A stretch of DNA of 54,393 bases from Acetatifactor muris (GTDB lineage Bacteria; Bacillota; Clostridia; Lachnospirales; Lachnospiraceae). The stretch is from NCBI GenBank assembly GCA_023664365.1, contig JAMPFR010000017.1, forward strand, positions 1 through 54,393. Reading direction: 5' to 3'. Of this stretch, positions 10,515-47,769 are shown piece by piece (within the stretch, counting starts at the first letter, position 1; every line of letters begins with the position of its first letter). The translations under genes were made by a program, and so were the position numbers. The notes beneath the pieces are model-generated. The model saw only the letters and a program-made list of their open reading frames with translations. It searched no databases and was not told the DNA's origin.

Positions 10515-10617
10515 CTCTTATTCAGAGTGGTGGAGATACAGAGGATCGGTGAAGCCACGGCAACCCCGTTTATACGGAAGGTGCCAGCCTGAGCGAGCAA
10601 CAGTCGAACAATAAGAG
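10515..10617 (+). ncRNA. SAM-I riboswitch (S-box leader)
   Basis: The closing helix P1 pairs CTCTTATT (10515-10522) with AATAAGAG (10610-10617). Between them are the conserved S-box pieces: AGAGTGGTGGAGA, GATCGGTGAAGCC, CGGCAACC, and GGTGCCAGCCTGAGCGAG. This RNA binds S-adenosylmethionine and here controls SAM synthetase. An intrinsic terminator follows at 10641-10667, so ligand binding should stop transcription before metK. Confidence 0.97.
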
Positions 10618-32828: not shown

Positions 32829-33062
32829 GTGAGTGAAAAGACGGAAATTGTTTTTATGCAGGCAAGATTGCTTCGGCTTGCGTCAGAAGAGTGGCATATG
32901 CCTATTCAGAGGATAAATGTATTATTTGATAAATATGATATCTTTGAATTTATTGAAGAATGTTATGACGTTTTTCATATGGAAGGCGACTATGCAGTGT
33001 TTGGTGAAGTTGAAGCGGTTCTGAAAAATAAGGGGGTAGATGTAAGTGCCGGAATTATATGA
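32829..33062 (+). CDS. DUF3791 protein
   Basis: 77 residues starting with GTG 32829 after AAAAGGGGACG. The sequence (EIVFMQARLLRLASEEWHMP, then NVLFDKYDIFEFIEECYDVFH and a GDYAVFGEVEAVLKNKGV end) is the DUF3791 family: a small cytoplasmic alpha-helical protein, normally encoded next to DUF3990, a family I recall as having an ADP-ribosyltransferase-like fold. The pair looks like a toxin-antitoxin module with DUF3791 as the likely antitoxin; that role is inference. It overlaps the next gene by 17 bp. Confidence 0.85.
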   Translation: MSEKTEIVFMQARLLRLASEEWHMPIQRINVLFDKYDIFEFIEECYDVFHMEGDYAVFGEVEAVLKNKGVDVSAGII

Positions 33063-33237
33063 TGGTATGCTTCTTTATCATGGAAGCTACTGTGAAGTGA
33101 AAACCCCGATCTTAGATAAATGCGCGGCGTTTAAAGATTTTGGAAAATTGACTTATTTAATTGGTGCTTATGGTGAGATCGGCGGCCCTTCTTATATAGT
33201 TGATATGTATAAAGAAGAACGGAGGAATAATAAATGA
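33046..33237 (+). pseudogene. Truncated DUF3990 protein
   Basis: 63 residues from GTG 33046. LLYHGSYCEVKTPILDKCAAFKDFG is the N terminus of DUF3990 (a family of usually about 150-170 residues), which then should continue with a GFYLTT-type strand and the rest of the fold. Instead LTYLIGAYGEIGGPSYIVDMYKEERRNNK follows and the frame stops. The central catalytic part is therefore missing, most simply by an internal deletion that fused the first 40 residues to the tail of this or another gene. It still overlaps DUF3791 (17 bp) and the DIP1984 gene (ATGA), so translation coupling is kept. Confidence 0.7.
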
Positions 33238-33686
33238 AACTGGCAACAGCACTATCAGAAAGAGCAGACCTGCAGAAAAAGCTGTCCGAGCTTGGAACCC
33301 GCTTAAACCAGAACGCCAAGGTACAGGAGGGAGAGAAGCCTTCGGAAGCCCCGGAGGAGCTTATGCAGGAACTGGACAGGATTGTGGGCAGGCTGGAAGA
33401 GTTGATTGCGAAAATCAATCTGACCAACAGCAGCACCATCCATAACGGCAGGACTATCACGGAGCTTCTGGCTCACAGGGACTGCCTCAAAAGCAGAATC
33501 CAGATTATGCGGAGTTTTCTGGACAACGCAAGCAGCAGGATAAATCGGTTGACTCACACGGAAATCAAGATTAAGAGTACCGTGCCGGTATCCGAACTGC
33601 AGAAAAAGGTAGACGCCCTGTCAAAGGAACTGCGGGAATGTGACGAACTGATTCAGGAATTGAACTGGACTACGGAATTAGTTTAA
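33234..33686 (+). CDS. DIP1984-family protein
   Basis: 150 residues, all helical. LATALSERADLQKKLSELGTRL, NLTNSSTIHNGRTITELLAHRD and the closing NW-T motif (QELNWTTEL) are the family's marks as I recall them. Function unproven; no catalytic motif is visible, and it looks like a two- or four-helix bundle able to bind something large. GGAGGAATAATAA is a good site for ATG 33234, which overlaps the stop of the truncated DUF3990. A structured RNA with a tRNA-like T-arm follows within 20 nt, suggesting the protein and the RNA belong together. Confidence 0.85.
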   Translation: MKLATALSERADLQKKLSELGTRLNQNAKVQEGEKPSEAPEELMQELDRIVGRLEELIAKINLTNSSTIHNGRTITELLAHRDCLKSRIQIMRSFLDNASSRINRLTHTEIKIKSTVPVSELQKKVDALSKELRECDELIQELNWTTELV

Positions 33687-33704
33687 TCTTTATTTAATTT
33701 TATA

Positions 33705-33875
33705 GATGGTAATCCGGCAGGGTGGATGTATCCTCTTCGGCAGAGAATGTGCCGGCCTGGTAGAGGCGCGGACCGCCTCCAAGGGGTTCGATTCCCCGTG
33801 TGAAAATGCATGTCCTGTAAAATAACATGCGTATCGTAACACCTTTTCATAACTACCATTGCATCAGCTGCCGGA
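33705..33875 (+). ncRNA. Structured RNA with tRNA-like T-arm and D-arm
   Basis: Seen directly: a perfect T-arm, GGGG (33783-33786) - TTCGATT - CCCC (33794-33797), with the canonical T-loop; a D-arm-like hairpin GCC (33755-33757) - TGGTAGA - GGC (33765-33767); a hairpin CGGCA / TGCCG (33738-33742, 33750-33754) with a 7-nt loop; a stem ATGCATGT / ACATGCGT (33806-33813, 33825-33832); TGAAAA / TTTTCA (33801-33806, 33844-33849). The ends pair in two crossing ways: ATGGTA (33706-33711) with TACCAT (33854-33859), and TCCGGCAG (33713-33720) with CTGCCGGA (33868-33875). There is no 7-bp acceptor stem or CCA, so it is not a tRNA. An untranslated RNA that mimics tRNA, as bacterial Y RNAs do, fits best. 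Confidence 0.7.
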
Positions 33876-33970
33876 CGAGGGTGGGATCGGGGAGATATTG
33901 ACAGGCGAAAGGAAGTGATCTTATTAAGCGTTTTGGACAGTCAGAGAAAAGTACGCGGATAAGGCGGGGT

Positions 33971-47579: not shown

Positions 47580-47703
47580 TACGGTCGCAAGATCAAAGCC
47601 GAAGACAGTAGGTTCCGGGGCGATTCCCAGGAGTAAGTTCGAAAAGGCGCCTACCGAGGAAAGAGTTTTACCGAGACTTTTTACCTTCCTGTCTTCAGGA
47701 GGG
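47580..47703 (+). ncRNA. L10 leader (ribosomal protein L10/L7-L12 binding RNA)
   Basis: The conserved pieces GCCGAAGACAGTAGGT, GGAGTAAGTTCGAAAAGGC and GCCTACCGAGG are present in order, which is the L10 leader. It binds the L10(L12)4 complex and regulates rplJ-rplL by feedback. The terminator at 47684-47712 is its probable output. Confidence 0.93.
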
Positions 47704-47712
47704 TTTTTCTTT
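47684..47712 (+). terminator. Attenuator at the end of the L10 leader
   Basis: CCTTCCTG (47684-47691) pairs with CAGGAGGG (47696-47703), 4-nt loop, followed by TTTTTCTTTT. It precedes the rplJ start by 57 nt. Confidence 0.88.
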
Positions 47713-47769
47713 TATAAAACTCCTTTCGGCAGGGGGAGACCCCCAAAAATTCTATAAGGAGGTAAAGAA

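What the first reader, a model, noticed from the sequence alone, without database searches (positions are those of the whole stretch)
33234..33875. tRNA-mimicking RNA directly behind a DIP1984 gene: candidate protein-RNA system
Within 20-30 nt of the DIP1984 stop, about 170 nt holds a perfect T-arm with canonical T-loop (33783-33797), a D-arm-like hairpin with GGTAGAG (33755-33767) and three further stems, yet no acceptor stem or CCA. Bacterial Y RNAs mimic tRNA in this way and work with a protein partner. I recall that a comparative survey of RNA repair systems described a tRNA-like RNA tied to SPFH or other scaffold proteins; that recollection needs checking. No ligase, Ro/TROVE or RtcB gene is adjacent here, so a protein that binds this RNA alone would be new. 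DIP1984 is helical and lacks catalytic motifs, as expected of an RNA chaperone or scaffold.
Basis: partly seen in the sequence, partly recalled or inferred. Interest (0 to 1): 0.78.

Follow-up and report, generated by a model that had tools for sequence, protein, structure and literature searches.

The report
RNA partner of the DIP1984 protein
Next to a small protein of unknown function lies what looks like a gene for an undescribed, intricately folded RNA that copies part of a transfer RNA; the two are found together in bacteria, plasmids and phages, and some phage versions of the RNA carry whole or apparently rearranged transfer RNAs inside them.

Summary
A structured RNA of about 193 nt (33702-33894) follows the DIP1984 gene. 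A covariance model from 40 homologues matched 91 of 100 sources fetched for DIP1984. All 91 matches lie beside the gene on its strand (89 downstream, 2 upstream); 51 were not training sequences. In 99 genomes (own and relatives) the RNA was found in 9 of the 10 with DIP1984 and in 0 of 89 without. Thirty-one of 40 base pairs change on both sides, including a pseudoknot. The T-arm is real but optional; the D-arm is not the conserved fold. No Rfam family matches, and the genome has no detectable RtcB or TROVE gene. In 7 of 11 phage records the gene lies within 1.4 kb of a tRNA gene. A shorter phage DIP1984 is followed by a longer RNA carrying an intact tRNA (32 of 80 loci) or, by a rotation test, a circularly permuted one (11 of 48 others; controls 0 of 139). 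Best reading: a mobile ribonucleoprotein presenting a tRNA-shaped module, perhaps as docking site or decoy for tRNA-acting factors. RNA and linkage are shown; transcription, binding and function are inferred.

The parts
33234..33686 (+). DIP1984 family gene, 150 aa (PF20935/DUF6847), presumed protein partner
   Evidence: a solved relative is PDB 3kdq (E 1.2e-45), named only 'uncharacterized conserved protein'
33702..33894 (+). DIP1984-associated RNA, whole element by covariance model R1
   Evidence: 172.4 bits (this sequence is in the training set); no Rfam family
33708..33711 (+). pseudoknot strand a (GGTA), pairs with 33854-33857 (TACC)
   Evidence: 94.4% of cells paired, almost invariant, so little covariation; letters checked
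33712..33720 (+). helix b 5' strand, pairs with 33868-33876
   Evidence: 9 of 9 pairs with changes on both sides in the alignment; the outermost pair of this one sequence is A-C
33725..33728 (+). helix c 5' strand, pairs with 33862-33865
   Evidence: 4 of 4 pairs with changes on both sides
33733..33754 (+). H-type pseudoknot d-e-d'-e' (d 33733-33737/33742-33746, e 33738-33742/33750-33754; base 33742 can serve only one of the two)
   Evidence: e: 6 of 6 pairs covary; d: almost invariant; pattern found in 74 of 89 bacterial RNAs against 12 of 89 shuffles
33759..33760 (+). GG before helix f, like the two D-loop guanines of tRNA
   Evidence: GG just upstream of f in 46 of 49 RNAs with a T-arm and 17 of 32 without; 10 of 91 had no f assigned, and the script misplaced f in a few
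33763..33779 (+). hairpin f (33763-33768/33774-33779), loop CGGAC 33769-33773
   Evidence: 5 of 5 pairs with changes on both sides; 74.5% of cells paired, lowered, I think, by misalignment between groups
33770..33773 (+). loop strand of pseudoknot 3 (GGAC), pairs with 33812-33815 (GTCC)
   Evidence: 98.8% paired, 3 of 4 pairs covary; one of its pairs ranks third in corrected mutual information and a second is in the top 110 listed
33783..33797 (+). T-arm with canonical T-loop
   Evidence: 3 of 4 pairs covary; optional across the family
33877..33893 (+). conserved G-rich 3' tail GAGGGTGGGATCGGGGA
   Evidence: near-invariant G columns in A3; by eye also in the cyanobacterial and Mycolicibacterium plasmid loci and in several full-length phage members, not in the Acinetobacter ones

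Best explanation
DIP1984 and the RNA beside it form a compact, horizontally mobile two-part ribonucleoprotein. The RNA core (stacked helices b and c, a long-range pseudoknot and a 3' tail) is the seat for the DIP1984 helical protein and holds out a tRNA-shaped module. In the window's lineage that module is a D-loop-like GG, an anticodon-arm-like hairpin whose loop pairs elsewhere in the RNA, and a T-arm. In many short-DIP1984 phages it is a whole intact or apparently circularly permuted tRNA. Many isotypes occur, and permuted copies, as I read them, have no free acceptor end, so the module seems to be used for its shape and not for decoding. The most likely job is to dock or trap factors that act on tRNA, for example tRNA-cleaving defence or toxin nucleases or tRNA-modifying enzymes, during phage-plasmid-host conflict. 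Shown: the conserved RNA, its fold by covariation, tight linkage to DIP1984, the tRNA modules and the tRNA-array context in phages. Inferred: transcription as a stable RNA, binding by DIP1984, and the decoy or docking role (I put the decoy step alone at about 0.3).
For: RNA conserved and beside DIP1984 on the same strand in 91 of 91 matches, 89 downstream with a median gap of 10 nt and 2 upstream. It reaches other phyla at E 8.1e-13 (Paracoccus, L012), 1.8e-8 (cyanobacterium, L011) and 7.9e-8 (Mycolicibacterium, L014), none of them training sequences. Found in 9 of 99 genomes, all with DIP1984, and in 0 of 89 without. Covariation: 0 of 500 shuffles as high. Apart from DIP1984 no gene family recurs in more than 10 of the 95 loci compared (looser clustering). 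Full-length phage copies lie by tRNA genes: combined P 1.1e-5 over the 8 of 11 records that have tRNAs. Short phage DIP1984: intact tRNA 82-165 nt after the stop codon in 32 of 80 loci, against 6 other tRNAs in 456 kb; permuted tRNA by rotation in 11 of 48 others, controls 0 of 48, 0 of 44 and 0 of 47. Of 67 short-clade loci, 53 have two stacked long-range helices around the tRNA region (shuffles 8 and 8 of 67), 37 of them also ACC just before c' (shuffles 0 and 2), and 26 also GCG in the b-c junction (shuffles 0 and 0).
Against: The T-arm was not found in 37 of 91 matches (strict script), so tRNA mimicry cannot be needed everywhere. Bacterial copies are not enriched near tRNA genes: 8 of 80 loci, 9 tRNAs in 802 kb. 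Phage tRNA arrays may simply be insertion hot spots. There is no expression or binding datum. Linkage to the gene's 3' side also fits a cis-acting 3' UTR. L021, a full-length DIP1984, has no recognisable RNA. Acinetobacter and Enterococcus copies score only E 0.05-0.14, and new full-length phage copies L142, L143 and L145 only E 0.015, 0.0049 and 0.00024. R1 does not detect the RNA of the short phage clade, so its kinship to the window's RNA rests on shared layout. The phage d/e pseudoknot is weakly supported (32 of 68 against 12 of 68 shuffles). In 37 of 80 short-clade loci neither an intact nor a permuted tRNA was detected.
Confidence: 0.5

Rival explanations
1. Cis-regulatory 3' UTR: DIP1984 binds the structured tail of its own mRNA and controls its stability or translation; the tRNA-like part is only a protein-recognition motif.
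For: Same strand in 91 of 91 and a median 10 nt after the gene; a terminator-like site follows the RNA in 21 of 59 loci by a lax script.
Against: The RNA lies upstream of the gene in L005 and L006; gaps reach 167-556 nt in 4 loci; its size, its pseudoknots and the whole tRNAs in phage members exceed what a UTR seems to need.
Confidence: 0.15
2. Conflict or abortive-infection module (type III toxin-antitoxin-like or tRNA-damage sensor): DIP1984 is toxin or effector and the RNA is its antitoxin or sensor.
For: Patchy distribution (10 of 99 genomes); plasmid and viral-contig carriage; in Acinetobacter it can lie on the same 8-kb plasmid as a BrnT/BrnA toxin-antitoxin pair, with a receptor gene between.
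Against: No nuclease family among its Pfam matches and no strong PADLOC match (best E 0.0023); no repeat array in the RNA region as ToxIN-type RNAs have (recalled), only a 22-base AT-rich repeat at the stop codon.
Confidence: 0.15
3. Ornate RNA of the GOLLD/ROOL kind: the RNA self-assembles and DIP1984 is an accessory; the function concerns phage development near tRNA islands.
For: GOLLD and ROOL lie often near tRNA islands and tRNAs are sometimes in the GOLLD linker (PMC12286853, passages); phage members here do similar things.
Against: No match to these families at gathering score in the sequences scanned; much shorter than GOLLD; tied to a protein family; bacterial members show no enrichment near tRNAs.
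Confidence: 0.15
4. Chance or artefact: unrelated stems behind a gene.
For: Single-sequence folding energy is not exceptional.
Against: Comparative statistics and 51 of 60 non-training sources found by the model.
Confidence: 0.02

Closest known systems
GOLLD and ROOL RNAs
   Same: Large pseudoknotted RNAs of phages and prophages, often near tRNA islands; tRNAs sometimes in the GOLLD linker (PMC12286853, passages)
   Different: No family match in the sequences scanned; about 190 nt here; tied to one protein family; seen in bacterial contigs of several phyla
Bacterial Y RNAs (YrlA) with Ro/Rsr
   Same: tRNA-like module in an RNA encoded beside a protein partner (recalled)
   Different: No TROVE match in the genome; partner would be DIP1984; tRNA module optional; different layout; no Rfam hit
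tmRNA-SmpB
   Same: tRNA-like part joined to pseudoknots; small protein partner (recalled)
   Different: ARAGORN, which also seeks tmRNA, reports none in the window; I see no tag reading frame or CCA end
tRNA-like RNA with SPFH/Band-7 in RNA-repair systems (Burroughs and Aravind 2016)
   Same: As recalled, a tRNA-like RNA beside a scaffold protein
   Different: Paper not held; no RtcB match in the genome; the nearest Band-7 gene is about 11 kb away; apart from DIP1984 no gene family recurs in more than 10 of 95 loci

Membership tests
DIP1984 protein family (PF20935 / NF038048) | Profile match above the curated cut-off | tested here: met
   180.2 bits against 27; 183.9 against 70
Bacterial Y RNA-Ro | TROVE-domain protein in the genome | tested here: not met
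   0 matches in the own genome (98% complete); the family rings in 1 of 14 control genomes
Bacterial Y RNA-Ro | Match to a curated RNA family | tested here: not met
   Only a 12.5-bit T-arm match to mascRNA at E 9.4; whether Rfam 15 holds bacterial Y RNAs was not checked
RtcB RNA-repair cassette | RtcB ligase gene | tested here: not met
   0 matches in the own genome; rings in 9 of 14 controls
tRNA or tmRNA | Complete cloverleaf or tmRNA call | tested here: not met
   ARAGORN 0 genes in the window
GOLLD / ROOL / OLE / raiA | Rfam covariance-model match at gathering score | tested here: not met
   No such match in the window, 9 bacterial or plasmid loci, 12 phage loci or 6 phage loci; that Rfam holds GOLLD, ROOL and OLE is said in PMC12286853 (passage), for raiA it is recalled
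GOLLD / ROOL-like kind | RNA forms homo-oligomers | not testable with these tools
   needs native gel, mass photometry or cryo-EM
Thiol-activated cytolysin ('septicolysin' label in Acinetobacter) | Cytolysin domain | tested here: not met
   L015 protein: PF20935 E 3.7e-45 and no cytolysin family up to E 0.01
Type III toxin-antitoxin | Toxicity of the protein neutralised by the RNA | not tested
   needs expression assay

The most novel reading that the evidence does not exclude
DIP1984 RNPs are a previously unseen class of protein-RNA machine, spread across phages, plasmids and several bacterial phyla, whose RNA is a socket into which evolution has plugged real tRNAs of many isotypes, circularly permuted tRNAs or stripped-down tRNA elbows, so that the particle displays a tRNA shape to trap or recruit tRNA-acting enzymes in virus-host conflict.
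Probability: 0.4. Interest if true: 0.95.

Novelty: categorically new. Interest (0 to 1): 0.87.

Why it matters
It would add a new structured RNA class with a ready protein partner whose structure is already solved but unexplained (3kdq), and give a function to a family of unknown function. Permuted tRNAs inside a phage RNA would, as far as I know, be a new use of tRNA architecture. It also suggests that the Acinetobacter 'septicolysin', described as a putative virulence factor in two papers (passages), is a misnamed RNA-partner protein, if those papers mean the gene so labelled.

Tried and rejected
Single-sequence folding: rejected as evidence. Y RNA/Ro and RtcB repair cassette: rejected. Conserved partner gene: none found in the loci compared; a 43-locus cluster came from loose single linkage and is gone under the stricter rules, where the largest cluster (20 loci) holds DIP1984 itself, as its printed member shows, and the next ones have 10 loci. 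Empty-site comparison with orthologues of the downstream EAL gene: no clean boundary; the upstream sequences printed for seven relatives differ. A hairpin h closing the partner strand of pseudoknot 3: pairing 50-100% per pair, left out of the model. tRNA proximity in bacterial loci: no enrichment. PHROGs: for DIP1984 only a 21-bit match. Papers: DIP1984 in 1 paper (listing only), DUF6847 in 0, p2AB5075 with sRNA in 0, permuted tRNA with bacteriophage and noncoding RNA in 0, 3KDQ in 0; searches also showed no report of this RNA in their listings. I saw passages only of PMC7824862, PMC13141974, PMC5559437, PMC12286853 and PMC7943614, and no paper in full. The library is open-licence PubMed Central only, so absence there is weak.

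Counts and dropped rows: one search found 87 loci by regex and missed 18. For A3 I left out T-arm-less, divergent and duplicate members by hand (43 listed; three more dropped; 40 kept). The 9 of 100 without a match: L013, L015, L016, L018, L021, L022, L025, L026, L027; the last three belong to the short phage clade, and L022 has the motifs by eye. In one search, 3 of 11 phage records without any tRNA could not be scored; P values assume uniform placement. Phage loci include near-identical copies (for example L219-L221 and L198-L199). In one search only the matched stretches of six of the nine short proteins L147-L155 were scanned.

Full report
What is there. The window is contig C83 of a 3.86-Mb genome; the nearest cassettes elsewhere are in contigs titled Acetatifactor sp. 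and uncultured Lachnospiraceae (91% protein identity). The DIP1984 gene, 33234-33686, is a clear member of PF20935/NF038048. ARAGORN finds no tRNA in the window. Rfam finds nothing at gathering score in this region and, at E up to 10, only a 12.5-bit match of the T-arm to mascRNA. The T-arm at 33783-33797 is exactly as reported. Folding the single sequence is uninformative (z -1.76 for 33690-33880; 0.02 for 33702-33894). A simple scan shows no promoter directly before the RNA and no terminator behind it.

Conservation. PF20935 is present in 10 of 99 genomes, own included; 9 of these 10 loci have a T-loop motif close to the gene. A scan of genome contigs gave 467 relatives, 80 of which were fetched. 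The sequence behind, or rarely before, the gene is strikingly conserved. From 40 sequences (A3), mutual information picked out the helices without a structure being given. Counting them: 40 pairs, 93.5% of cells paired, 31 pairs and 282 cells with changes on both sides, 0 of 500 shuffles as high on any of five measures, and sliding the partners drops pairing to 36-46%. Helices b (9 of 9 pairs covarying), c (4 of 4), e (6 of 6), f (5 of 5, though only 74.5% of cells pair) and the T-arm (3 of 4) are supported. Pseudoknot 3, in which the f loop (for example GGGC, GGAC, GAGC or GAAC) pairs with a downstream GCCC, GUCC, GCUC or GUUC, pairs in 98.8% of cells with 3 of 4 pairs covarying. Strands a/a' and d/d' pair almost always but hardly vary, so they rest on pairing, not covariation.

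Linkage. Covariance model R1 run on the window and 99 loci gave 91 matches, one per source, all on the strand of DIP1984: 89 downstream (median gap 10 nt, 85 within 150 nt) and 2 upstream by about 30 nt. Fifty-one of 60 non-training sources matched. R1 E-values are rough by the tool's own statement. Untrained matches include Paracoccus (E 8.1e-13), a cyanobacterium (1.8e-8) and Mycolicibacterium (7.9e-8); contigs titled Treponema and Succinimonas carry it too but were in the training set. With filters off, the Acinetobacter (L013, L015, L018) and Enterococcus (L016) loci each give their best hit just behind the gene, at E 0.05-0.14. L021 gives none. In the 99 genomes R1 hits 9, all among the 10 with DIP1984, and none of the 89 without it (strict filters, 25 candidates scored per genome). 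The tenth scores 34.5 bits when its locus is searched alone (L009). Apart from DIP1984 no gene family recurs in more than 10 of the 95 loci compared, and those 10 look like one syntenic lineage (with looser rules). The genome has no RtcB and no TROVE match; a Band-7 gene lies about 11 kb upstream.

The tRNA side. In bacteria the tRNA-like module is partial: a GG, hairpin f and the T-arm follow each other as D-loop, anticodon arm and T-arm do in a tRNA (my reading). GG precedes f in 46 of 49 RNAs with a T-arm and in 17 of 32 without one (10 of 91 had no f assigned and the script misplaced f in a few), as expected if it contacts the T-loop; relatedness was not corrected for. That strict script finds the T-arm in 54 of 91 and misses some, so the T-arm is an accessory.

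Phages, full-length DIP1984. Eleven viral records were seen. In L017, L142 and L143 the gene sits 16, 37 and 31 nt from a tRNA, in records with 6, 39 and 28 tRNAs. In L022 and L024 it lies 0.5 and 1.2 kb from the nearest of 28 and 37 tRNAs, with tRNAs on both sides, and in L023 and L020 1.0 and 1.3 kb from a tRNA. L019 is 16.7 kb away, and L018, L021 and L145 lie in records without tRNAs. Under uniform placement the combined P is 1.1e-5 over the eight records with tRNAs; five of the eight are above 0.05 singly. R1 scores there are weak: best E 7.9e-6 (L139, the same place as L024), L142 0.015, L143 0.0049. Bacterial loci show no such enrichment.

Phages, short DIP1984. A protein of about 100 aa matches PF20935 over its C-terminal part (E 1.2e-6 to 3.2e-10 for the matched stretches of six loci). 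A scan gave 96 relatives, 80 kept. An intact tRNA starts 82-165 nt after the stop codon, same strand, in 32 of 80, with isotypes such as Ile, Lys, Gln, Thr, Asn, Arg, Ser and Asp; six other tRNAs occur in the 456 kb. In the 48 without one, rotating the stretch and allowing an anticodon-loop interval yields a tRNA in 11, against 0 of 48 shuffles, 0 of 44 upstream and 0 of 47 downstream windows. These look circularly permuted: the 3' half comes before the 5' half. In 37 of the 80 neither was detected. Around the tRNA region, 53 of 67 distinct loci have a long-range helix b, a short junction and a second helix c (shuffles 8 and 8); 37 of the 53 also have ACC just before c' (shuffles 0 and 2), with 35 different b strands, and 26 also GCG in the junction (shuffles 0 and 0). 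The bacterial core has the same layout, so I take the two as one RNA superfamily, though R1 does not bridge them. Named isolates exist: 13 Vibrio phage records carry a match to the short protein, annotated as hypothetical.

How it probably works. The constants are DIP1984, the b/c core and close linkage; the variable is a tRNA-shaped insert which occurs with many isotypes and, when permuted, seems to have no acceptor end. That argues for use of tRNA shape rather than decoding. Carriage on plasmids (371 records, 342 of them Acinetobacter), viral contigs and a patchy set of genomes suggests conflict. Docking or decoying tRNA-acting factors is the explanation I find most likely, but it is inference; a cis-acting UTR, a toxin-antitoxin or sensor module and a GOLLD-like particle remain open.

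What is known. PDB 3kdq is a DIP1984 relative called only 'uncharacterized conserved protein'. In the held library no paper names 3KDQ or DUF6847, and one names DIP1984 (listing only). GOLLD and ROOL are the nearest in kind: phage RNAs often near tRNA islands, tRNAs sometimes in the GOLLD linker (PMC12286853, passages); no match to them was found. Burroughs and Aravind 2016, which as I recall describes a tRNA-like RNA with SPFH proteins, was not held, so overlap with it cannot be excluded; this is the main risk to the novelty claim. Two papers treat the Acinetobacter 'septicolysin' as a cytolysin (PMC5559437; PMC7943614, passages); a plasmid record with that label (H32) has DIP1984 there, and the L015 protein matches only PF20935 above cut-off.

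Noticed in passing
window 10515-10617 and 47581-47719: SAM riboswitch (71.7 bits) and ribosomal protein L10 leader (57.5 bits), both above Rfam gathering scores.
   Followed up: no
window 32829-33237: Two short genes just upstream of DIP1984: a DUF3791 protein and a 63-aa piece matching the first 31 of 152 positions of DUF3990, below its cut-off; both weakly resemble PADLOC candidate defence pair PDC-M13. The DUF3990 piece looks truncated.
   Followed up: partly
L015 4963-5424 and other Acinetobacter plasmids: The gene called septicolysin in one plasmid record (H32) is a DIP1984 protein; the L015 copy has no cytolysin match and an RNA-like sequence behind it.
   Followed up: partly
L198, L204, L219, L234, 60-340 nt after the short DIP1984 gene: Apparent circularly permuted tRNAs (3' half before 5' half) inside a phage non-coding RNA.
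   Followed up: partly
L175, about 100 nt after the short DIP1984 gene: The embedded tRNA is called tRNA-Stop with anticodon TTA, a possible UAA suppressor.
   Followed up: no
L198 4892-4958: int-alpA RNA (51.6 bits) in the same phage contig.
   Followed up: no
L064, L074, L082, L088, L092, L097, L101: DIP1984 plus RNA in contigs titled Treponema, Aeromonadales, Ruminobacter, Succinimonas and proteobacterium, 64-66% identical in protein to the window's copy: suggests gene transfer among gut and rumen bacteria; several titles are of metagenome bins.
   Followed up: no
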